DNA of 45,664 bases from Verrucomicrobiia bacterium Tous-C4TDCM (GTDB lineage: Bacteria; Verrucomicrobiota; Verrucomicrobiia; Verrucomicrobiales; Akkermansiaceae), in assembly GCA_002304315.1 (NCBI GenBank), contig NEUO01000009.1:1-45664 (forward strand), given 5' to 3'. This document shows positions 148 through 32,857 of the stretch, one piece after another. The notes beneath the pieces were generated by a model. It saw only the letters and a list, made by a program, of their open reading frames with translations, had not been told where the DNA came from and did not search any database. Made by a program: the position numbers and the translations under genes. How positions within the stretch are numbered: position 1 is the first letter of the stretch; each line of letters starts with the position of its first letter.

Positions 148-771
148 TCAGCGAAGAGTCGCGGCGATCTCGGTGGCGAGGCGGGCGAGGAGGCGGCTTT
201 GGGCGGCGGCAACGGCGTCGAAGCCGTCGGAGGTGAGGGGCTCGGTGCCGGACCAGGATTTCGAGGCGGTCAGGCGGCGGTCGGGCAGCGAATAGACGCG
301 CCAGGCGGCGTCGAGCACGGCATCGCCATCCGCGGTGCCGTGGAGCTGGCGGATGTCGAGGGTGACTTGGTAGCGCAGTTCGCCGTCGCTGCCCCAGGGA
401 TAGGTCCGGATGTTGCCGGTGCCGAGGCGACGGCCGAGGTTGGTGGCGGTGACGCGGGCGATGTTTTCCTCAAGGTCGCCGGCCCAGCGGTGGGACTCGG
501 CGATGGACATGCGGTTGCCGCCTTCCTGGAAGACCAGGTTGGTGCGGTCGAGGTAGCCGGCAAGCGATACCGGGCCGACGCCGATGGCCGTGCCGCCGCC
601 AGCCGGCGCGGGGCCTTCGGCGGTGAGGACGTAGAAGGATTTGGGGGTGGCGCAGCTGGCGGCGAGGAGTGAGAGCGCGAGAACGAAGAGGCGCTTGAAG
701 TTCCAAGTGAAAAGTGCCAAGTGCCAAGGAAGGCAGGAAGAAGCTTGGGGCATTGTCGGATGGCTATTCAT
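148..771 (-). CDS. pqiC: PqiC-like ABC-transport auxiliary lipoprotein
   Basis: This is the last gene of a pqiAABC operon. The family (PqiC/YmbA, DUF330) is an outer-membrane lipoprotein that works with the MCE protein PqiB in lipid transport across the envelope. A signal peptide with a lipobox is visible: KRLFVLAL, then LAASC, with the Cys as the lipidation site, followed by KSFYVLTAE, typical of the family's first strand. The start is unclear. ATG codons at 771 and 753 and a TTG at 720 are all in frame, none has a good ribosome binding site, and a 7-base repeat array (698-729) lies in the N-terminal coding part. The TTG at 720 would give the most usual signal peptide. Family assignment is fairly sure; the start is not. 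Confidence 0.75.
   Translation of the reverse strand: MNSHPTMPQASSCLPWHLALFTWNFKRLFVLALSLLAASCATPKSFYVLTAEGPAPAGGGTAIGVGPVSLAGYLDRTNLVFQEGGNRMSIAESHRWAGDLEENIARVTATNLGRRLGTGNIRTYPWGSDGELRYQVTLDIRQLHGTADGDAVLDAAWRVYSLPDRRLTASKSWSGTEPLTSDGFDAVAAAQSRLLARLATEIAATLR
698..729 (-). repeat. Heptamer array, type A (copy 1)
   Basis: Read on the minus strand, this is a run of 7-base units: TTGGCAC, TTGGCAC, TTTTCAC, TTGGAAC, TTC. Spacing is exactly seven bases. The same unit order occurs at 6251-6281. It overlaps the start region of pqiC, so it is probably translated in part. Confidence 0.85.
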
Positions 772-836
772 TGGCACTTGGAACTTCTAACTTGGAACTT
801 CGCCGATTGGCACTTGGAACTTCTCACTTGGAACTT
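771..836 (+). repeat. Heptamer array, type A (copy 2)
   Basis: Two blocks of 7-base units lie end to end: TTGGCAC, TTGGAAC, TTCTAAC, TTGGAAC, TTCGCCG, one extra A, then TTGGCAC, TTGGAAC, TTCTCAC, TTGGAAC, TT. The array fills the gap between pqiB and pqiC, and its last bases overlap the pqiB stop codon (835-837). Confidence 0.88.
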
Positions 837-3768: not shown

Positions 3769-3780
3769 CCTGAAAAGCGA

Positions 3781-3815
3781 GTTGAGAGTCGATGGTTGAG
3801 TGTTGATAGTTCAGA
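3781..3815 (+). repeat. Heptamer array, type B (copy 1)
   Basis: Five 7-base units in a row: GTTGAGA, GTCGATG, GTTGAGT, GTTGATA, GTTCAGA. It faces an inverted copy at 3884-3920, so the two arrays flank a 68-base stretch in the gap upstream of pqiA1. Confidence 0.85.
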
Positions 3816-3883
3816 TCCAGCGGTTTGGGTCGTTGTCGTGCTTGATCGTTGAAGTGGAAGGGCATTTCGGCGTGGACTCTTCT

Positions 3884-3920
3884 GCATCGACTATCGACCA
3901 TCGACCCTCAACTCTCAACT
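3884..3920 (-). repeat. Heptamer array, type B (copy 2, inverted)
   Basis: On the plus strand the units read GCATCGA, CTATCGA, CCATCGA, CCCTCAA, CTCTCAA, CT. On the minus strand this is the same GTTGARR / GTCGATR family as at 3781-3815, so the pair is inverted and could form an imperfect long hairpin. Confidence 0.85.
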
Positions 3921-3941
3921 TGCCTTCCCCAAGCTGGCGGA

Positions 3942-8726: not shown

Positions 8727-10868
8727 ATGAACATCCATAAAGTCACGGGCCAGGTCGGCTCGAACCCCATTACCTTCGAAACGGGTAAAATCGCCAAGCT
8801 CGCCGATGGTGCCGTCATGGTGACCTCCGGCGAAACCGTGGTCCTCGTGACCGCCGTGTCCGCCACGAAAGTGAAATCCGGCCAGACCTGGTTCCCGCTT
8901 TCCGTCGAGTACAAGGAAAAAGCCTCCGCCGCCGGCCAGTTCCCGGGCGGCTACTTCAAGCGCGAAGGACGTCCGACCGAAAAGGAAATCCTGACCTGCC
9001 GCATGACCGACCGGCCGCTGCGCCCGCTGTTCCCGAAAGGCTACCTTTACGAAACCCAGATCATCGCGCTGCTCCTCGCCGCCGACCAGGTCAACGACTC
9101 CGACATCCTGGCGATGAACGGCGCGTCCGCCGCCCTCGCCATCTCCGACATCCCCTTCGCCGGCCCGATCGGTGCGGTGCGCGTCGGCCGCGTCGATGGT
9201 GAATTCATCATCAACCCGGTGTTCGAAGACCGCGAGCAGAGCGACCTCGACCTGATCTACGTCGGCAACAAGACCGACGTCATCATGATCGAAGGCGCCG
9301 CCAACGAGATCTCCGAAGAAGACTTCATCAAGGCCCTCCACTTCGCCCAGGGCGCGGTGACCACGCTGGTCGAAGCTCAGGAAGAACTGGTTCGCCTCGC
9401 CGGCAAGCCGAAGCGCGAATACACCGTGACCGTGGCCAAGGAAGAGCTCCTCGAGATCGGCTACGAGATCGCTGGCAGCCGCATCGAAGACGCCATCTAC
9501 GCCCCGTCCAAGGTCGAGCGTGGCAAGAAGGTCGGCGTGCTCCGCGACGAAGTGGAAGCCGCGATCAAGGCCCGCTACCCGGAGTCCACCGACTTCGACG
9601 TCGAGCAGGTCTTCGAATACATCCAGAAGAAGGCCTTCCGCATTTCCATCATGGAAAAGGGCGTGCGTGCCGACGGCCGCCAGATCGGCGATCTCCGCCC
9701 GCTGTTCGCCGAAGCCAACTCGCTGCCCCGCGTCCACGGCTCCGCCATCTTCGCCCGCGGTGAAACGCAGGCGATGGGCATCTGCACGCTGGCTCCGGCC
9801 GACGAGAAGCAGTTCTTCGACAACTACGCCGGTGGCGAGGACAGCAAGCGCTTCATCCTCCACTACAACTTCCCTCCGTTCTCGGTGGGTGAGTGCGGCC
9901 GCATGGGTGGCATCAACCGTCGCGAAATCGGCCACGGCGCGCTTGCCGAACGCTCGATCGCCCCGGTCATCCCGGACGTCGCCGATTTCCCGTACGCCAT
10001 GCGCGTCTCGTCGGAAGTCATGGAGTCCAACGGCTCCACCTCGATGGCCACGGTCTGCGCCGGCACCATGTCGCTTCTCTGCGCCGGTGTCCCGCTCAAG
10101 GCTCCGGTCGGCGGCATCTCCGTCGGTCTGGTGACCGAGTGGAATGACGACGGCACCATGAAGTCCCACAAGGCGCTGCTCGACATCATCGGTTCCGAAG
10201 ACTTCTACGGTGACATGGACTTCAAGCTCTGTGGCACCGACGCCGGCGTCACCGGTTACCAGCTCGACCTGAAGCTCGCCGGTCTCCCGATGGCGATCCT
10301 CGAGGAAGCCATCCACATGGCCAAGGCCGCCCGCACCACGATCATCGCCAAGATGACCGAAGCCGTGTCCGGTCCGCAGGAGCTCAGCGCCCACGCGCCG
10401 CGCATCGTGTCCGTCAAGATCCCCGCCGACCGCATCGGCGAGCTCATCGGGCCTGGTGGCAAGAACATCAAGGGCATCCAGGCGGAGTCCGGCGCCGACA
10501 TCAACATCGAGGACGACGGCACCGTTCACATCTACGCTTCCAAGCAGGAAGGCCTGGAGCGTGCGAAGGCGCTGATCGACCGGATGTTCCAGGAGATCGA
10601 AGTCGGCAAGGTCTACACCGGCAAGGTGGTCAGCATCACCAACTTCGGTGCCTTCATGGAAGTGCTCCCCGGCAAGGACGGCCTGATCCACGTTTCCGAG
10701 CTGGCCGAAGGCCGCACCGAGAACGTCGAGGACATCGTCAAGAAGGGCGACATCATCACCGCCAAGTGCATGGGCGTGGATGAAAAGGGCCGCGTCAAGA
10801 TGAGCCGCCGCGCGGTGCTTCGCGACGAGAAGGCCAAGGCCGCCGAGGGCGAGCCTGCCCAAGGTTGA
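8727..10868 (+). CDS. pnp: Polynucleotide phosphorylase
   Basis: This 713-residue 3'-5' exoribonuclease degrades RNA with phosphate and is a core degradosome enzyme. Domains in order: first RNase PH-like domain (about 5-140), helical linker, second and catalytic RNase PH-like domain (about 310-540, with FPPFSVGECGRMGG and the Asp pair in DFYGDMDFK), KH domain (about 555-610, IGPGGKNIKGI as the GxxG loop), S1 domain (about 620-690, GKVYTGKVVSITNFGAF). All are intact. The usual long acidic tail is short (ends AEGEPAQG). An overlapping opposite-strand reading frame is a mirror effect of GC-rich codons. Confidence 0.98.
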   Translation: MNIHKVTGQVGSNPITFETGKIAKLADGAVMVTSGETVVLVTAVSATKVKSGQTWFPLSVEYKEKASAAGQFPGGYFKREGRPTEKEILTCRMTDRPLRPLFPKGYLYETQIIALLLAADQVNDSDILAMNGASAALAISDIPFAGPIGAVRVGRVDGEFIINPVFEDREQSDLDLIYVGNKTDVIMIEGAANEISEEDFIKALHFAQGAVTTLVEAQEELVRLAGKPKREYTVTVAKEELLEIGYEIAGSRIEDAIYAPSKVERGKKVGVLRDEVEAAIKARYPESTDFDVEQVFEYIQKKAFRISIMEKGVRADGRQIGDLRPLFAEANSLPRVHGSAIFARGETQAMGICTLAPADEKQFFDNYAGGEDSKRFILHYNFPPFSVGECGRMGGINRREIGHGALAERSIAPVIPDVADFPYAMRVSSEVMESNGSTSMATVCAGTMSLLCAGVPLKAPVGGISVGLVTEWNDDGTMKSHKALLDIIGSEDFYGDMDFKLCGTDAGVTGYQLDLKLAGLPMAILEEAIHMAKAARTTIIAKMTEAVSGPQELSAHAPRIVSVKIPADRIGELIGPGGKNIKGIQAESGADINIEDDGTVHIYASKQEGLERAKALIDRMFQEIEVGKVYTGKVVSITNFGAFMEVLPGKDGLIHVSELAEGRTENVEDIVKKGDIITAKCMGVDEKGRVKMSRRAVLRDEKAKAAEGEPAQG

Positions 10869-22820: not shown

Positions 22821-24377
22821 ATGATCGAAACGATCGACCTGATCCTGCCCCTCGAAGCCTCCGGGGATGAGGCGGCGTGGAAGGATGCCGCGGCGAAGAA
22901 GCTCGGGCTCGCGCCATCGCGGGTGACGGGCGTGCGGCTGTTGAAGCATTCGCTCGATGCCCGTCAGCGGGCGGTGAAGGTCCAGCTCCGGCTCGAGGTG
23001 GCGGTGGACGAGCCCTTGCCGGCGGAAGTCACGCCGGTCTGGTCCGCGCCGGCCCTGCCGCGCGATGCGAAGACGGTGGTGATCGTCGGCTGCGGCCCGG
23101 CGGGGATGTTCGCGGCGCTGCGATGCCTGGAACGCGGGCTCAAGCCGATCGTGCTGGAGCGCGGCAAGGATGCCTCCGCCCGCCGCTTCGACCTCGCGCC
23201 GATCCTGCGGCAGGGGACGGTGATCGAGGATTCGAATTACTGCTTCGGCGAAGGTGGTGCGGGGACTTTCTCCGACGGCAAGCTCTACACCCGGGCCACC
23301 AAGCGCGGTCCGGTCGCACGGGTCTATGAGATCCTGGTCGCCCACGGCGCGCCGACGGCGATTCTAACAGACGCGCATCCGCACATCGGATCGAACCTGC
23401 TGCCGAACGTGGTCAAGGCGATGCGCGCGTCGATCCTCGAAGGCGGTGGTGAGGTGCGGTTCCAGACCAAGGTGGTGGATTTCATCACGAGCGGCGACCG
23501 GCTGCGCGGCGTGGTCACCGCGGCGGGCGAGGAAATCATCGGTGATGCCGTGATTCTGGCGACCGGTCACAGCGCGCGGGACATCTACCGCTTGCTGGCA
23601 GCGAAGGGGATTTTGTTAGAGCGCAAGCCCTTCGCGGTCGGCGTGCGGATCGAGCACCCGCAGCCGTTCATCGATGCCGAACAGTATCACCTCCGCCAGG
23701 ACGAGCCGCGGCCCGACCTGCTCCCGGCGGCGAGATATGCGGTGGCGACCAAGATCGACGACCGTGGCGTGCATTCGTTCTGCATGTGCCCCGGAGGTTT
23801 CATCGTGCCGGCCTCGACCGAGAACGACGAGGTGGTGGTCAACGGCATGAGCCTGGCCCGCCGCGACTCGCCGTTCGCGAATTCGGGGTTGGTGGTGACG
23901 GTCGAGCCGGAGGACACGGATTCCTTTGCCAAGGAGCATGGCGTGCTGTCGGGCATCGCGTATCAGAAGGCGCTGGAGGTCGCGGCAAAGCAGGCCGGCG
24001 GCGGCGGGCAGGTCGCGCCGGGGCAGCGGGTGGCGGATTTTTTGGTGGGGAAGGTTTCGGCCGATCTGCCGAAGACGAGCTACTTTCCCGGCGGCAAGTC
24101 GGCGCCGCTGCATGAGATTTTGCCGTCGGGGATCGTGCGGAGGATGCAGACCGGCTTGCGCTTGTTCGACCGGAAGATCCGCGGTTATGCCGGCAAGGAG
24201 GCGCTGCTGTTAGGGTTCGAGACGCGGACCAGTTCGCCGGTGCGGATCCCGCGGCGCGACGATACGCTGGAGCATCCGGCGATGAAGGGGCTGTATCCGT
24301 GCGGGGAAGGCGCGGGATTCGCCGGGGGAATCGTCAGTGCGGCGCTGGACGGGATGCGGGTGGCGGAGGTGTTGTAG
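22821..24377 (+). CDS. FAD-dependent dehydrogenase (COG2509 type)
   Basis: The 518-residue flavoprotein has an N-terminal domain of about 80 residues (SRVTGVRLLKHSLDARQRAVK) followed by the FAD-binding Rossmann motif VVIVGCGPAGMFAALRC (about 88-104). Other family marks: YCFGEGGAGTFSDGKLYTR, GDAVILATGHSARDIYRLL, VHSFCMCPGGFIVPAS and, at the C-terminus, LYPCGEGAGFAGGIVSAALDGM. This matches the uncharacterised FAD-dependent dehydrogenases of COG2509. The substrate is not known. The stop codon (TAG, 24375-24377) lies at the edge of a REP-like repeat. Confidence 0.9.
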   Translation: MIETIDLILPLEASGDEAAWKDAAAKKLGLAPSRVTGVRLLKHSLDARQRAVKVQLRLEVAVDEPLPAEVTPVWSAPALPRDAKTVVIVGCGPAGMFAALRCLERGLKPIVLERGKDASARRFDLAPILRQGTVIEDSNYCFGEGGAGTFSDGKLYTRATKRGPVARVYEILVAHGAPTAILTDAHPHIGSNLLPNVVKAMRASILEGGGEVRFQTKVVDFITSGDRLRGVVTAAGEEIIGDAVILATGHSARDIYRLLAAKGILLERKPFAVGVRIEHPQPFIDAEQYHLRQDEPRPDLLPAARYAVATKIDDRGVHSFCMCPGGFIVPASTENDEVVVNGMSLARRDSPFANSGLVVTVEPEDTDSFAKEHGVLSGIAYQKALEVAAKQAGGGGQVAPGQRVADFLVGKVSADLPKTSYFPGGKSAPLHEILPSGIVRRMQTGLRLFDRKIRGYAGKEALLLGFETRTSSPVRIPRRDDTLEHPAMKGLYPCGEGAGFAGGIVSAALDGMRVAEVL

Positions 24378-24622
24378 GGTGGCGTAGCACGTTGCGATTG
24401 GGGGGCGGACCGCTGCACCGGAGAGCTTCGTGGCCGGGTGAACGGACGGCCGCGAGAAGCGCGCAACTTGCAAAGTTGCGCTACTTCGTGCCGAAGATGC
24501 CGGCACGGCGTTGTAGCGTGACGTTGCACGTTGCGATGGGGGGCGGGGCGCTTTACCGGAGAGCTTCGCGGCCGGGTGAACGGACGGCCGTCAGAAGCAC
24601 GCAACTTGCAAAGTTGCGCTAC
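24374..24622. repeat. Tandem BIME-like element (two REP pairs)
   Basis: Two units of about 110 bases repeat with a period of 138-139. Each starts with GTAG and a hairpin on the plus strand (ACGTTGCACGTTGCG in unit 2) and ends with CGCAACTTGCAAAGTTGCG followed by CTAC, i.e. a GTAG-led hairpin on the minus strand. In between lie shared sequences such as CCGGAGAGCTTCG and GGCCGGGTGAACGGACGGCC. Unit 1: about 24374-24484; unit 2: 24513-24622. The outer ends overlap the stop codons of the two converging genes. Confidence 0.85.
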
Positions 24623-25488
24623 TTGGGGAACCCCTTCCGCGGTTCCCAGTCTAACAGGTCTTTGGCTTTCCTGACATCCGCCAAGGTCGCCGGTACGTCG
24701 GCGGGGTGCTCGGGGCCGTATGCGACCTTCGCCTTGAGCCCGGTCCACTGTTCCGCGGCGCGGAGCATGTCGTTGACCGAGTGATTCGTACCGGTGCCGA
24801 TGTTGAAGACTTCGAAGCCGGTTCCACTCCATCTGATCGCGGCTTCCACCGCGCGGGCCACGTCGGACACGTGGGTGAGGTCGCGCCGCTGGCTGCCGTC
24901 GCCGTGGATGGTGATGGTTTCGCCGGCGAGGATCTTTCGCCGGAAGGATTCCAATGCGAGATCCGGTCGCTGGCCCTCGCCCCAGACTGCGAAAAGTCGG
25001 AGCGCGATAAAGTCGATGCCGTGGAGTCGCGTGTAGAGCCGGCCCCATTGCTCGCCCTGTTGCTTGGTCAGCGCGTAGGGACTGCATGGTGCAAGAGCAT
25101 CGTCTTCGGAACTCGGATTGCCGTCGGTCGGGCCGTAGACGCTGGAGGAGGAAGCGAAGAGGAAGCGCGGGGTGCCGTGCTGGCGGGCGTGCTCTAACAG
25201 GCGGAGGGTGCCGCCGAGGTTGGTTTCGAGATAGTCGAGCGGCCGCTCGATGGACGGGCGCACCCCGCCGAGGGCAGCGAGGTGGACGATGGCGTCGAAG
25301 CGCGACGCGGGGAGTGCGCCGTCGCGGAGATCGCAGATGATTTCATCGACGCCTTCCGGATGCGGCGCGGTGGGGGTGCCCAGGTCCAGCGCGGTCACGT
25401 GGTTCGTTGCGGATAGATGCCGGACGACATGATAGCCGATGAATCCGGACGCGCCGGTGACGAGGACGGTGGGCTTGTTAGACGGCAT
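24619..25488 (-). CDS. NAD-dependent sugar-nucleotide epimerase/dehydratase
   Basis: The 289-residue protein is an extended short-chain dehydrogenase: VTGASGFIGYHVVR (10-23, NAD binding) and the catalytic SPYALTKQQG (Tyr and Lys of YxxxK) with SSSSVYGP ahead of them. It resembles UDP-glucose 4-epimerases and related dehydratases; the exact substrate is unclear. Its start overlaps the end of the double glycosyltransferase by 11 bases, so it probably supplies a sugar nucleotide for the same glycan. The stop codon lies in the BIME-like repeat. Confidence 0.9.
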   Translation of the reverse strand: MPSNKPTVLVTGASGFIGYHVVRHLSATNHVTALDLGTPTAPHPEGVDEIICDLRDGALPASRFDAIVHLAALGGVRPSIERPLDYLETNLGGTLRLLEHARQHGTPRFLFASSSSVYGPTDGNPSSEDDALAPCSPYALTKQQGEQWGRLYTRLHGIDFIALRLFAVWGEGQRPDLALESFRRKILAGETITIHGDGSQRRDLTHVSDVARAVEAAIRWSGTGFEVFNIGTGTNHSVNDMLRAAEQWTGLKAKVAYGPEHPADVPATLADVRKAKDLLDWEPRKGFPK

Positions 25489-29614: not shown

Positions 29615-29683
29615 CGGCGGTGATGATGCAAATGTGAGGGATTCCGGCGATTACAAGTTGGTGGGGGAGTTTCCCAGCGTGAG

Positions 29684-29764
29684 GTGTCCCGTTGGGACAC
29701 GGGAAACCAACTCAGCCCACCCGGCACTTCGTGCCGGGCTTTTATGAGTGGTCCCGTTGGGACC
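29684..29764. repeat. Cluster of three small palindromes before the FGE-like gene
   Basis: GTGTCCCGTTGGGACAC (29684-29700) and GGTCCCGTTGGGACC (29750-29764) share the same stem-loop core, GTCCCGTTGGGAC. Between them lies CCGGCACTTCGTGCCGG (29721-29737) followed by GCTTTT, which could end transcription in the plus direction. The cluster fills the 29615-29838 gap, which otherwise shows nothing clear. Confidence 0.75.
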
Positions 29765-29838: not shown

Positions 29839-32691
29839 CTAATGCGCCGCCAGCCAGTTCGGGCCGGTGCCGTGCTCGACGAGAATCGGCACGTCGCCGG
29901 GCAGGGGCAGGGCGGTTTGCATGGCATCGAGGATCTTCGGGATGAGCTCGGCCTGTTCCTCTGGGGCGAGGTCGAAGACGAGTTCATCGTGGACCTGGAG
30001 CAGCATTTTCGTTTGGTACGGCGTTTCCCGTAGCAAGGCGTCGATGCGGATCATCGCCAGCTTGATCATGTCGGCGGCGCTGCCCTGGATCGGGGTGTTG
30101 ATGGCGGCGCGTTCGGCGTTGCCGCGGATGGTGGGATTGCCGGACGTGAGATCGGGGAAGTAGCGGCGGCGGCCGGCCAGCGTCTCGACGTAGCCGCTTT
30201 CGCGGGCTTCCTGGATGGTGCGGTCCATGAACTCCTTGATGGCCGGATACTGCTTGAAGTAGTTGTCGATGATCTCCGCGGCCTCGCCGCGCGGGATGGC
30301 GAGGCGCTGGCTGAGGCCGAAGGCGGAGATGCCGTAGATGATGCCGAAGTTCACCATCTTCGCGCCGCTGCGCTGCTCACGGGTGACTTCGCTTTCGGCG
30401 ACGCCCCAGACTTTCGCGGCGGTGGCGGTGTGGATGTCGCGGTGGTCGCGGAATGCGTCGATCATCGAGGCGTCGTTGGCGAGGGCGGCCATGACGCGGA
30501 GCTCGATCTGGGAGTAGTCGCAGCTCAAAAGTTGATAGTGGATGGTGGATGGTGGATGGCTGGAACGCGGGACGAAGGCCTTGCGGATCTGTTTGCCGAG
30601 GGCGGAGCGGATCGGGATGTTCTGCAGGTTGGGATCGGTCGAGGCGAGGCGGCCGGTGGCGGCTACGAGCTGGTGGAACTGGGTGTGGATGCGTCCCGTT
30701 TCCTTCACGATGTGGCCGGGGAGGGCGTCGAGGTAGGTGCCTTTGAGCTTGGTGGCCTCGCGGTATTCGAGGATCTCGTCGATGATCGGGTGCTTGCCGG
30801 CGAAGGTCGCGAGGGTCTGCTCGTCGGTCTTGAACTGGCCGGTCTTGGTCTTCTTCGCCTTGTCGGCGAGGCCGAGTTCGTTGAAGAGGATTTCGCCGAG
30901 TTGCTTCGGCGAGTTGAGGTTGAAAGGTCGTCCGGCGTGGACGGCGATCGTCTTCGTGAGCTCGTCGATCCGCTGCTGGAGCTGGCCGCCGATCTCGACG
31001 AGGGCGGCGGGGTCGATGGCAATGCCTTCCATTTCCATGCGGACGAGAACGGGGAGCAGCGGACACTCGATGTCCTGGAAGACGTGCTGCTGGCCATCAA
31101 GGAGCGGGCGGAGTTTCTCGGCGAGCTGCCAGGTGACGTCGGCGTCCTCGGCGGCGTATTCGGCGAGGGTGGCGAGGGGAATGGCGGTGATATCGAGGTT
31201 CTTGGAGGCTTTCTTGACCTCGGCGTAGGCGAAGAGGTCTTCCGATTGCCGATTGTCGATTGTCGATTGAGGATTTGCGATGTCGGCGAGCTTGATGGGG
31301 GCGTAGCCGAGCATGGTCTCGCTGAGGTAGTCCATGGTGTGGCGCTGGTCGGGGGTGACCAGGGCGTGGGCGAGCATGGTGTCGAAGAAGGGGCCGGCGA
31401 CCTCGATGCCGTGGTGGTGGAGGATGGAGAGGTCGTATTTGAGGTTGTGGCCGATTTTCTCCGCCGGGGCGGAGAGGGCCGATTGAAGATTGTCGATTGT
31501 CGATTGTTGATTGTTGATCGGGAGATACCAGGCTTCGTGGGATTGCCAGGAGAAGGCGACGCCTAACAGTTTTGCTTCGAAGCGGTCGAGGCTGGTGGTC
31601 TCGATGTCGAAGCAGAAAGACTTTTGTTGGGAGAGGAGGGCGAAGAGCTCGGCTTGTTTCTCGGGGGTGTCGGCGAGGTGGTAGGTGTGGGGGACGTCGC
31701 GGATGGTTTTGAAGGTGTCGAAGAGGGTGGGTTGGGGGGGAGAGGCGGGATTTTCGGAGGATTCGCGCGGAATGAATTGCCGTTGGCCATCTCCGCTGCG
31801 CTGCGGTTTCGCGCTCCCAGTGCTGTTGCCGAAGAGGCGCTTGGTGAGGGAGCGGAATTCGAACTCGGTGAAGAGGTCCTTGATCGCCTCGTCGTCGCGG
31901 GGGGAGACGAGGAGGTCCTCCCAGGTGACGTCGATGGGGGCGTCGATGATGATGGTGGCGAGATCCTTCGAGAGCAGGGCCTGGTCGGCGTAGGTCTCAA
32001 GGTTCTCCTTCTGCTTGCCCTTCAGCTTGGAGGTGTTGGCGAGGAGGTTTTCGATTGAGTGGAAGTCGGCGATGAGCTTCTGCGCGGTTTTCGGGCCGAT
32101 GCCGGGGACGCCGGGGATGTTGTCGACCGAGTCGCCCATCAGGCCGAGCAGTTCGATGATTTCGTGCGGGTTCTGGACGCCCCAGATTTCAGGGAGCTTG
32201 GAGAGGCCGATCACCTCGTGTTCGTCACCCTTGCGGCCGGGCTTCCACATGAAGGTGGTGGCGCTGATGAGCTGGGCGAAGTCCTTGTCGGGGGTGACCA
32301 TGTAGGTTTCGAAGCCTGCGGCCTCGGCGCGCTTGGCGAGGGTGCCGATCAGGTCGTCAGCCTCGTAGCCGTCGATTTCCAGCAGCGGCAGGTGGAAGGC
32401 CTGGCAGAGGCGCTTCACGTGCGGGATGGCGGTGGCGAGTTCCTCCGGCATCTCGTCGCGCTGGGCCTTGTAGGCGGGGAATTTCACGTGGCGCGGGGTC
32501 GGCGCGGAGGTGTCCCAGGCGACGCCGAGGTGGGTCGGCTTCTCCTTGTCGAGGATGGTCAGCAGGGTGTTGATGAATCCGTAGAGGGCGGAGGTGTTGA
32601 CGCCCTTGGAGTTGCGGATGGGATTCTGGATGAAGGCGAAATGGGCCCGGTAAACGAGGGCCATTCCATCCAGCAGGAAAAGTCGCGGCAT
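29839..32691 (-). CDS. polA: DNA polymerase I with heptamer-encoded loop insertions
   Basis: The 950-residue enzyme fills gaps and removes RNA primers. All three domains are present: 5'-3' exonuclease (about 1-290; EIDGYEADDLIGTLAK, GDSVDNIPGVPGIGPKTA), proofreading 3'-5' exonuclease (about 345-545; DIETTSLD, HNLKYDLSIL and YAAEDAD supply the acidic residues) and polymerase (motif A DYSQIELR, motif B RSGAKMVNFGIIYG, motif C QVHDELVF). Three loops are built by 7-base repeat arrays: about residues 390-404 (INNQQSTIDNLQS), 472-483 (NPQSTIDNRQS) and 712-721 (HPPSTIHYQ), at positions where E. coli PolA has other loops. All motifs are intact, so the enzyme should be active. Confidence 0.96.
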   Translation of the reverse strand: MPRLFLLDGMALVYRAHFAFIQNPIRNSKGVNTSALYGFINTLLTILDKEKPTHLGVAWDTSAPTPRHVKFPAYKAQRDEMPEELATAIPHVKRLCQAFHLPLLEIDGYEADDLIGTLAKRAEAAGFETYMVTPDKDFAQLISATTFMWKPGRKGDEHEVIGLSKLPEIWGVQNPHEIIELLGLMGDSVDNIPGVPGIGPKTAQKLIADFHSIENLLANTSKLKGKQKENLETYADQALLSKDLATIIIDAPIDVTWEDLLVSPRDDEAIKDLFTEFEFRSLTKRLFGNSTGSAKPQRSGDGQRQFIPRESSENPASPPQPTLFDTFKTIRDVPHTYHLADTPEKQAELFALLSQQKSFCFDIETTSLDRFEAKLLGVAFSWQSHEAWYLPINNQQSTIDNLQSALSAPAEKIGHNLKYDLSILHHHGIEVAGPFFDTMLAHALVTPDQRHTMDYLSETMLGYAPIKLADIANPQSTIDNRQSEDLFAYAEVKKASKNLDITAIPLATLAEYAAEDADVTWQLAEKLRPLLDGQQHVFQDIECPLLPVLVRMEMEGIAIDPAALVEIGGQLQQRIDELTKTIAVHAGRPFNLNSPKQLGEILFNELGLADKAKKTKTGQFKTDEQTLATFAGKHPIIDEILEYREATKLKGTYLDALPGHIVKETGRIHTQFHQLVAATGRLASTDPNLQNIPIRSALGKQIRKAFVPRSSHPPSTIHYQLLSCDYSQIELRVMAALANDASMIDAFRDHRDIHTATAAKVWGVAESEVTREQRSGAKMVNFGIIYGISAFGLSQRLAIPRGEAAEIIDNYFKQYPAIKEFMDRTIQEARESGYVETLAGRRRYFPDLTSGNPTIRGNAERAAINTPIQGSAADMIKLAMIRIDALLRETPYQTKMLLQVHDELVFDLAPEEQAELIPKILDAMQTALPLPGDVPILVEHGTGPNWLAAH
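30531..30558 (+). repeat. Heptamer array, type B, inside polA
   Basis: Units GTTGATA, GTGGATG, GTGGATG, GTGGATG in exact 7-base register. On the coding (minus) strand they give the residues HPPSTIHYQ just before the LLSCDYSQIELR motif A of the polymerase domain. Confidence 0.88.
31244..31278 (+). repeat. Heptamer array, type C, inside polA (copy 1)
   Basis: Units GATTGCC, GATTGTC, GATTGTC, GATTGAG, GATTTGC. The coding strand reads NPQSTIDNRQS, in the region between the DxxSLAE-type segment and YAAEDAD of the proofreading domain. Confidence 0.9.
31481..31522 (+). repeat. Heptamer array, type C, inside polA (copy 2)
   Basis: Units GATTGAA, GATTGTC, GATTGTC, GATTGTT, GATTGTT, GATCGGG. The coding strand reads PINNQQSTIDNLQS, in a loop before HNLKYDLSIL of the proofreading domain. 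The orientation is the same as that of copy 1. Confidence 0.9.
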
Positions 32692-32730: not shown

Positions 32731-32799
32731 CCGGGAACGCCGGTCTTCAGACCGGCAGTCGGGGACCACTCGAGCCGGTCTGAAGACCGGCGCTCCCGG
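32731..32799. repeat. Inverted repeat upstream of polA
   Basis: Arms 32731-32757 and 32772-32799 are near reverse complements. Each also contains its own GCCGGTCT/AGACCGGC hairpin. The outer bases (GGGAGCGCCGGTCT) match the palindrome at 6088-6243, so the two belong to one family. It lies in the divergent gap between polA (minus) and the proline-rich gene (plus). Confidence 0.8.
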
Positions 32800-32857
32800 G
32801 GGGAAGGGAAAAATCTGGTCAAAGGTTGGGCGAAATCCCTACGTATGGGGCATAACG

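What the first reader, a model, noticed from the sequence alone, without database searches (positions are those of the whole stretch)
30531..31522. Three 7-base repeat arrays lie inside the polA coding sequence and are translated
Arrays at 30531-30558, 31244-31278 and 31481-31522 keep exact 7-base register and are made of units such as GATTGTC and GTGGATG. They encode QSTIDN-type and HPPSTIHYQ segments. By comparison with my memory of E. coli PolA, they sit in loops, away from the catalytic motifs, which are all intact. Seven-base units change frame unless three or more are added together, so only selected copy numbers could survive. This looks like a mobile or expanding repeat family that tolerates gene insertion, comparable to Rickettsia palindromic elements or cyanobacterial STRRs, but of different sequence.
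Basis: partly seen in the sequence, partly recalled or inferred. Interest (0 to 1): 0.8.

Follow-up and report, generated by a model that had tools for sequence, protein, structure and literature searches.

The report
Translated seven-base repeats from IVS-like elements
Three runs of a repeated seven-letter DNA unit sit inside a bacterium's DNA polymerase I gene and are translated; the same repeats form the mirror-image ends of small stem-loop elements around a poorly understood four-helix protein in several bacterial phyla, which suggests where these common repeats come from.

Summary
polA (29839-32691, minus, 950 aa) of an unnamed Akkermansiaceae draft genome carries three period-7 arrays in loops. 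Of 79 polA loci from a relatives scan, 20 carry such arrays, all at the same three loops but often with different units. LeuS and MutS show the same recurrence.

Their origin looks traceable. Inverted heptamer arrays flank genes of the four-helix 23S-rRNA intervening-sequence protein (PF05635). Left and right flanks are complementary in 57 of 61 Akkermansiaceae loci (not all independent), 21 of 25 loci from other lineages and 10 of 12 plasmid loci; random places and mismatched pairs reach this in 10-16%. The arrays can pair into an RNA stem with the gene in the loop, as in rRNA intervening sequences. In-gene arrays of this genome match its own PF05635 element ends (mean 21.2) far better than those of other genomes (9.9). 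Unit order is conserved between copies, and one operon junction shows filled, empty and solo-array states.

I read the polA arrays as solo end-repeats, kept where they stay in frame. Active mobility is not shown: recent full-element copies were not found, and slippage clearly lengthens some arrays.

The parts
29839..32691 (-). polA, DNA polymerase I, 950 aa, host gene of the three arrays
   Evidence: Pfam DNA_pol_A 2.5e-151, 5'-3' and 3'-5' exonuclease domains
31481..31518 (-). array at site A (residues about 392-404), coding strand ATCAACAATCAACAATCGACAATCGACAATCTTCAATC, CAATCNN family; in the 3'-5' exonuclease domain
   Evidence: relatives without it read YLPYSDSLL and similar, others carry ISNLKSQISDLKS and similar
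31242..31275 (-). array at site B (residues about 473-484), CAATCNN family, in a stretch of low model confidence
30530..30559 (-). array at site C (residues about 711-721), CCATCCA family, loop between a helix and the strand that leads to motif A
697..836 (.). gene-less inverted pair of AAGTGCC/AAGTTCC-type heptamer arrays over the 5' end of the ABC_trans_aux lipoprotein ORF (148-777 minus)
   Evidence: inverted repeats 35 nt 89% and 30 nt 93% complementary; fold of 690-838 z -6.05
3774..3926 (.). gene-less inverted pair of GTTGAGA/GTCGATG-type heptamer arrays in a stretch between called genes
   Evidence: inverted repeat 37 nt 78% complementary, 79 nt between the arms; fold of 3770-3905, which leaves out the end of one arm, z -3.08

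Best explanation
The polA arrays are solo copies of the end repeat of a family of intervening-sequence-like (IVS-like) elements. A complete element is: tandem heptamer array, gene for a four-helix-bundle protein of family PF05635 (related to the Avd protein of diversity-generating retroelements), inverted heptamer array, about 450-500 bp in all. In RNA the two arrays can pair into a long stem with the gene in the loop, as in the classic IVS of 23S rRNA. Single ends and gene-less inverted pairs are dispersed in the genome. Where one landed in, or overwrote, a loop of a gene such as polA, leuS, mutS, uvrA or purL, it survived if the net change kept the frame and, as a rule, if its C-rich strand was the coding one. 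A 7-bp unit reads the same heptapeptide cycle in all three frames of a strand, and on the C-rich strand that cycle usually has no stop, so the insert is nearly frame-independent. Shown: arrays, recurrence at the same loops, open frames, inverted arrays around PF05635 genes, same repeat families in genes and at element ends of the same genome, ordered units, filled/empty/solo states at one operon junction. Inferred: that copies move, that the PF05635 protein helps them move, and that the RNA stem is processed.
For: PF05635 flanks: complementary left and right flanks (score >=16) in 35 of 36 Akkermansiaceae loci (all 11 of 11 context groups), in 22 of 25 further family loci and in 21 of 25 loci of other families and phyla, against 10-15% of mismatched pairs, 14.7% of 2000 random places and 6 of 78 short genes of G000. 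Lag 7 on at least one side in 33 of 36, 18 of 25 and 17 of 25; single random windows 1.45%. Plasmid loci: 10 of 12 complementary, mismatched pairs 15.9%; at a stricter 20, 6 of 12 against 6.8%. Own-genome match: 17 in-gene arrays score 21.2 on average against 5 own elements and 9.9 (highest set mean 12.5) against 12 sets of 5 elements of other genomes. Unit order: 28 of 48 heterogeneous arrays have a match of >=26 elsewhere; shuffled unit order gives 11.4 on average and 19 at most in 30 shuffles. The G000 MutS array and the G006 polA site-A array are identical over 38 nt. livG-livF junction: element present, absent, or one array alone. Fold z -7.73 for the CAATC-ended element of this genome. 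Coding strand C-rich in 15 of 17 in-gene arrays; all three frames open in 57 of 66 arrays on the C-rich and 10 of 66 on the G-rich strand. Protein relatedness and end-repeat similarity go together at unrelated sites (1 of 500 permutations reaches it), for example L315 and L317 of this family and L360/L361 of Rhodopirellula/Stieleria, about 61% identical proteins with GTTGAGA-type ends.
Against: No recent full-element duplication was found in eight genomes: same-genome PF05635 elements share at most 82% identity over short stretches, apart from one 90.6% pair in G000 that lies at two contig ends, so its contexts cannot be compared. The protein/end-repeat correlation is weak overall (rho 0.12), and its highest-scoring pair consists of two loci below the Pfam cut-off. 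Family loci are not independent: the 36 fall into 11 context groups, one of 22. Arrays far outnumber complete elements (six PF05635 hits over the cut-off in G000 against 69 arrays in a quarter of the genome). Some arrays are long and homogeneous and must have grown in place. One array-positive genome (G007) has no PF05635 hit. Two of 12 plasmid loci have heptamer flanks in direct, not inverted, orientation. The second folded element is only z -2.92. No RNA data. The 20 array-bearing polA loci of the named scan are all from MAGs.
Confidence: 0.6

Rival explanations
1. Plain in-place slippage: each array arose from a chance 7-bp seed in its own gene and grew by polymerase slippage; no copying between places is needed.
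For: Heptamers are over-represented among bacterial simple repeats and a slippage cause has been proposed (PMC4692102, passages seen). Long homogeneous arrays exist. Native sequences at sites A and B hold ATC or ATCC seeds in register (seen by eye).
Against: Unit order is conserved between dispersed arrays; a 38-nt identity links two different genes in two species; within a genome, arrays at different places share unit types with its own element ends (by eye).
Confidence: 0.2
2. Reverse order of cause: heptamer arrays are older intergenic repeats, and PF05635 genes insert into them as favoured targets.
For: Arrays are much more numerous than PF05635 genes.
Against: Insertion into a tandem array would leave direct flanks; the flanks are complementary, hence inverted, in 57 of 61 family loci. 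The element-free livG-livF junctions L392 and L394 show no array; L395 has only ACGAATGACGAA, under two units.
Confidence: 0.08
3. The arrays are binding sites of a regulator of translation or transcription, kept for that function, as proposed for TAACTGA repeats of Beggiatoaceae.
For: Such a role was proposed for TAACTGA repeats, and repeats inside ORFs were noted there too (PMC4679880, abstract and one section seen).
Against: Units differ between and within genomes, and arrays sit in loops of several unrelated genes.
Confidence: 0.05
4. The shared loops carry selected peptides: a 7-bp repeat encodes a heptad-like amphipathic segment, so protein-level selection made the same peptide again and again.
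For: Site-A arrays keep a helix-like pattern similar to the native SDSLLPALRS segment, and the model has a helix from 396.
Against: The period is in the DNA and crosses all codon phases; sites B and C have low model confidence, and site C accepts unrelated inserts in L049 and L050.
Confidence: 0.05

Closest known systems
23S rRNA intervening sequences (IVS) with the S23p ORF (Leptospira, Coxiella)
   Same: Terminal inverted repeats form a stem, a PF05635-type ORF lies between; size near 430 nt; tandem GACAGAT heptamers are reported just upstream of the Coxiella S23p ORF, with copy number varying between strains (PMC4990558, passages seen).
   Different: The elements whose contexts I read lie between protein genes, not in rRNA; both ends are heptamer arrays with many different units; gene-less and solo copies lie in and between genes.
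Heptameric repeats of bacteria (cyanobacterial STRRs, Xanthomonas/Nostoc GGGAATC-type, Beggiatoaceae TAACTGA)
   Same: Seven-base tandem units, dispersed, with variable positions in the Xanthomonas case (PMC4692102 passages, PMC4679880 abstract and one section; STRRs recalled).
   Different: No link to PF05635 was stated in the passages that I saw; here arrays recur in the same loops of housekeeping genes.
Rickettsia palindromic elements
   Same: Dispersed repeats translated in frame inside protein genes (recalled; only a search listing was seen).
   Different: The polA arrays are direct tandem repeats, not palindromes.
Avd of diversity-generating retroelements
   Same: Related four-helix-bundle family: PF22296 bAvd-like is a second hit of one of three tested proteins, just under its cut-off; homology is stated in PMC10053308 (passage seen).
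   Different: No reverse transcriptase or template repeat was looked for near these elements.

Membership tests
IVS element | PF05635/S23p ORF between terminal inverted repeats | tested here: met
   For the complete elements. Not for the polA arrays, which have no ORF or partner array
IVS element | stem with the ORF in the loop | tested here: met
   Computed folds of two elements only: z -7.73 and -2.92
IVS element | location in 23S rRNA | tested here: not met
   The elements whose contexts were read lie between protein genes, such as livG-livF and the efflux genes of L361; rRNA genes were not searched
IVS element | excision by RNase III | not testable with these tools
   No RNA data
Rickettsia palindromic element | in-frame presence inside protein genes | tested here: met
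Rickettsia palindromic element | palindromic repeat | tested here: not met
   Each polA array is a direct tandem repeat of one orientation
Cyanobacterial STRR | heptanucleotide tandem units | tested here: met
Cyanobacterial STRR | descent from the cyanobacterial repeats | not tested
   Only a shared period and a shared PF05635 association were seen
MITE | short gene-less element with terminal inverted repeats | tested here: met
   Window pairs 697-836 and 3774-3926; not for the polA arrays
MITE | target-site duplication and a transposase acting in trans | not tested
   No duplication was sought; array ends are not sharply defined
Slippage-type simple sequence repeat | units independent in order between places | tested here: not met
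   Unit-order shuffle test; long homogeneous arrays do fit slippage

The most novel reading that the evidence does not exclude
Much of the long-unexplained heptamer repeat content of bacteria (Verrucomicrobiota, Planctomycetota, Bacteroidota, Cyanobacteriota) is the end-repeat debris of one class of mobile IVS-like elements encoded only by an Avd-related four-helix protein. Its mostly stop-free, frame-independent ends make it an element that can enter essential genes as protein sequence.
Probability: 0.4. Interest if true: 0.88.

Novelty: new variant of a known kind. Interest (0 to 1): 0.74.

Why it matters
Heptamer repeats have been known to be over-represented in bacteria without an agreed cause, and PF05635 genes are scattered through operons, CRISPR loci and rRNA genes without a known job. 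A link between the two gives both a testable origin. If the repeats do move, they are a source of new in-frame protein segments in essential genes such as those of DNA polymerase I, leucyl-tRNA synthetase and MutS.

Tried and rejected
Chance: rejected. Codon-level low complexity: rejected, since the register is 7 nt and crosses codon phases. Simple insertion in multiples of three units: rejected, since arrays replace native codons and lengths vary in steps of 3 nt. Insertion of PF05635 genes into pre-existing direct arrays: disfavoured by the inverted flanks. Recent transposition of whole elements inside one genome: sought in eight genomes and not shown. The 90.6% pair in G000 is at contig ends; other same-genome pairs share at most 82%, apart from three pairs of overlapping loci of neighbouring elements that match at 100% by construction. 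Phage records: no tblastn match for one PF05635 protein. The library holds only open-licence papers, so this is weak evidence of novelty. PMC6749651 was read in its first part only; it treats repeat units of 10 nt and more.

Limits of the counts. The gene caller was my own (codon log-odds), so coding/non-coding splits are approximate. Of the 17 in-gene arrays, those in L152 and probably L293 may lie in wrongly extended gene starts; the one in L267 was not identified. Stretches of G000 were partly chosen because one search had found matches there; therefore also gives a subset without those contigs (33 arrays in 707,574 bases, 6 in called genes, 23 outside, 4 partly). The 25 genomes were chosen mostly for being rich in arrays. 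Of 87 PF05635 loci held, 21 without full flanks were left out; one of the remaining 66 had no usable ORF. Five loci below the Pfam cut-off were scored apart (2 of 5 complementary, no lag 7). The 25 loci were not grouped by context. Of 24 plasmid records with a match, 12 were fetched; for one of them (L429, unannotated) I guessed the gene ends. In one search the reversed pattern also has matches in a few of the 195 genomes (for example 30 in G154 and 13 in G167), so it is not a perfect zero control there.
Full report
WHAT IS THERE. The window is contig C196 of an unnamed, 72% complete draft genome of 4.28 Mb in 206 contigs; the nearest named isolates by polA are Haloferula and Luteolibacter, in the Akkermansiaceae, Verrucomicrobiota (family name from record titles and recall). 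polA (29839-32691, minus) encodes 950 aa with the Pfam domains of DNA polymerase I. Three period-7 arrays lie in it at 30530-30559, 31242-31275 and 31481-31518. The excess over chance is clear in the window (6 lag-7 segments against 0.3 expected), in the genome (46 overlapping pattern matches at about 22 places against 0 for the reversed pattern) and in a 1.07-Mb sample (69 lag-7 segments; periods 4, 5, 10, 11, 13 give 0-2, period 8 gives 12, multiples of three give 17-22 up to 12).

RELATIVES. A scan returned 79 polA loci, some partial. Lag-7 arrays at threshold 11 occur in 20 of these, 31 segments in all, and every one lies at site A (query residues 391-397), B (469-473) or C (709-712). Over the 109 loci scanned (30 further loci included, partly the same genes) period 7 has 36 segments, 14 (a harmonic) 26, 9 has 13, 12 has 6, others 0-5. 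The units differ: CAATCAA, AAATCTC, CAATATC, CCATCCC and others. Close relatives lack arrays as blocks: L032 (92% identical protein) has none, L031 (93%) has A and B but not C. Inserts replace native codons: with arrays, site C grows from 75 to 93, 96 or 108 nt in the compared stretch, and site A stays at 93 or grows to 99 nt. In L049 and L050 site C holds other inserts that look palindromic by eye (102 and 153 nt).

OTHER GENES. In the G000 sample, arrays lie inside Pfam-identified genes of LeuS, an SNF2-type helicase, MutS, UvrA and a PurL-like protein besides PolA; arrays also touch the start regions of ORFs with M20 peptidase, DUF58 and ABC_trans_aux domains, where the gene start is doubtful. 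For two of them I looked at relatives. The MutS loop carries arrays at score 11 or more, with several unit types, in 5 of 30 loci (L160, L173, L174, L188, L189; L177 reaches 10.6). In 25 genomes chosen mostly as array-rich, LeuS site 1 carries arrays (score 10 or more) in 6 and site 2 in 5 genomes. Arrays are nevertheless depleted in coding DNA: 6 of 33 inside genes where 82.5% of the sequence is called coding. In genes of at least 900 bp, 15 of 17 arrays have the C-rich strand as coding strand; 57 of 66 arrays are open in all three frames on that strand and 10 of 66 on the other. Since 7 is not a multiple of 3, a regular array gives the same heptapeptide cycle in each frame of a strand; this follows from arithmetic.

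STRUCTURE. An AlphaFold2 model of PolA (mean pLDDT 85.7, 22 sequences) puts site B in a stretch of low confidence (blocks 59 and 42), site C in a loop (block 68) between helix 697-705 and strand 720-726, and site A at the start of helix 396-407. So 'loops' is right for B and C and only partly for A.

SOURCE OF THE REPEATS. Of 29 neighbouring array pairs within 1.5 kb, 14 are G-rich then C-rich, that is inverted. [quoted passage not shown] I then took PF05635 genes as the starting point. The family occurs in 150 of 195 genomes of the host's family. For loci over the Pfam cut-off and with full flanks, left and right flanks are complementary (score >=16) in 35 of 36; these fall into 11 context groups, one of 22 loci, and all 11 show it. 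A further 22 of 25 family loci and 21 of 25 loci of other families and phyla, reached through Bacteroidota, Planctomycetota and other Verrucomicrobiota genomes, show it too. Controls: 10-15% of mismatched pairs, 14.7% of 2000 random places, 6 of 78 short genes of G000. Period 7 is the period concerned: over 66 loci, 41 left and 42 right flanks reach the threshold at lag 7, 33 and 32 at its harmonic 14, and at most 8 on one side at any other lag from 4 to 15; random windows 8 of 600 at lag 7. Twelve plasmid loci (11 cyanobacterial, one Gemmatimonadota) give 10 complementary pairs, with 15.9% of mismatched pairs as control; at score 20 it is 6 of 12 against 6.8%. The two exceptions, L426 and L427, have heptamer arrays in direct orientation.

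LINK BETWEEN THE GENE ARRAYS AND THE ELEMENTS. The two unit families in polA, GATTGNN and GATGGNN, are found at the ends of PF05635 elements of the same genome (L357/L145 and L322/L343). The 17 in-gene arrays match five own elements with a mean score of 21.2, against 9.9 for random sets of elements of other genomes (highest set mean 12.5); the 46 other arrays behave alike, 21.3 against 10.6. Dispersed arrays share the order of their unlike units beyond shuffles, for example GATTGAC-GATTGTC-GATTGAG-GATTTTT at an element end (L145) and at another place (L266). At the livG-livF junction the element is present in G000, G008, G009, G094 and G151, absent in G003, G029 and G072 (the G029 junction has ACGAATGACGAA, under two units), and in G010 a single array remains, followed by AAACAGCCATG, the same leader that precedes the PF05635 start in G000; the G026 junction was tried and not resolved. 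Elements at unrelated sites with related proteins tend to have related ends (rho 0.12; wrong-orientation control -0.10; 1 of 500 permutations), most clearly L315 and L317 of this family with L360 and L361 of Rhodopirellula maiorica and Stieleria sedimenti. In the family sample, 63 of 64 genomes with CAATC arrays have PF05635, against 87 of 131 without; relatedness and genome size are not controlled.

MECHANISM. The arrays of the CAATC-ended element pair into a near-perfect stem of about 45-50 pairs that encloses the ORF (z -7.73); the GATGG-ended element is weaker (z -2.92). This is the form of the 23S rRNA IVS. In Coxiella the IVS is reported to have a 28-bp terminal stem, RNase III excision, and three tandem heptamers GACAGAT before the S23p ORF, whose number varies (PMC4990558; passages seen). 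PF05635 genes have been reported inside cas loci (PMC3936711, passages), in rRNA insertions of CPR bacteria (PMC11270868, passages), and as related to Avd (PMC10053308, passage). I infer that the polA arrays are solo ends of such elements. How an end is copied into a gene is not known; overwriting without length change at site A in L049 and L107 fits gene conversion between arrays at least as well as insertion.

AGAINST. No recent whole-element copying was seen, the cognate correlation is weak, family loci are partly the same insertion, arrays outnumber elements greatly, and slippage evidently lengthens some arrays. The 20 array-bearing polA loci of the scan come from MAGs; the element structure itself was also seen in complete cyanobacterial plasmids and in draft genomes of isolates such as Stieleria sedimenti.

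VERDICT. A real, in-frame, dispersed repeat in loops of essential genes; best explained as debris of IVS-like elements with a PF05635 gene. The family tie is well supported, the movement is not yet.

Noticed in passing
L045 and L068 polA site B; L197 and L207 LeuS site 1: A second kind of translated repeat, peptide AAVSNRQA or AASNRQA, shared by two different genes; in L045 its DNA holds the palindrome GGCGGTTTCCAACCGCC. The same loops thus seem to accept heptamer arrays and REP-like palindromes.
   Followed up: partly
L050 and L049, polA site C: Other inserts (78 and 27 nt longer than the empty form), palindromic by eye, in frame at the loop before motif A.
   Followed up: no
L361:2952-3033 (Stieleria sedimenti) and L360:2952-3033 (Rhodopirellula maiorica): An inverted pair of GTTGAGA-type arrays lies inside the frame of an efflux-type gene next to a PF05635 element with the same kind of unit.
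   Followed up: partly
L156:7911-12809, called as one 1632-aa ORF: PurL-like protein with five heptamer arrays, including a translated inverted pair at 8786-8877, and a stretch matching Kinase-PolyVal (PF18762) in the middle.
   Followed up: no
L425 (Picosynechococcus plasmid) and L427 (Pseudanabaena plasmid): PF05635-type genes between cas10/cmr2 and cmr3, and between cas6 and cas4; L427 has long heptamer arrays on both sides in direct orientation.
   Followed up: no
window 24371-24624: Tandem repeat of 138 bp, 1.8 copies, 89% alike.
   Followed up: no
window, about 29683-29760 and 32738-32800: Short inverted repeats (GTCCCGTTGGGAC-type and CCGGTCTTCAGACCGG-type) on either side of polA, seen by eye.
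   Followed up: no
G000 contig ends: L141:1-59, L144:14480-14692, L149:10864-10958, L286:1-123, L299:1-141: Long, rather homogeneous heptamer arrays sit at contig ends, so they probably break the assembly and their number is underestimated.
   Followed up: no
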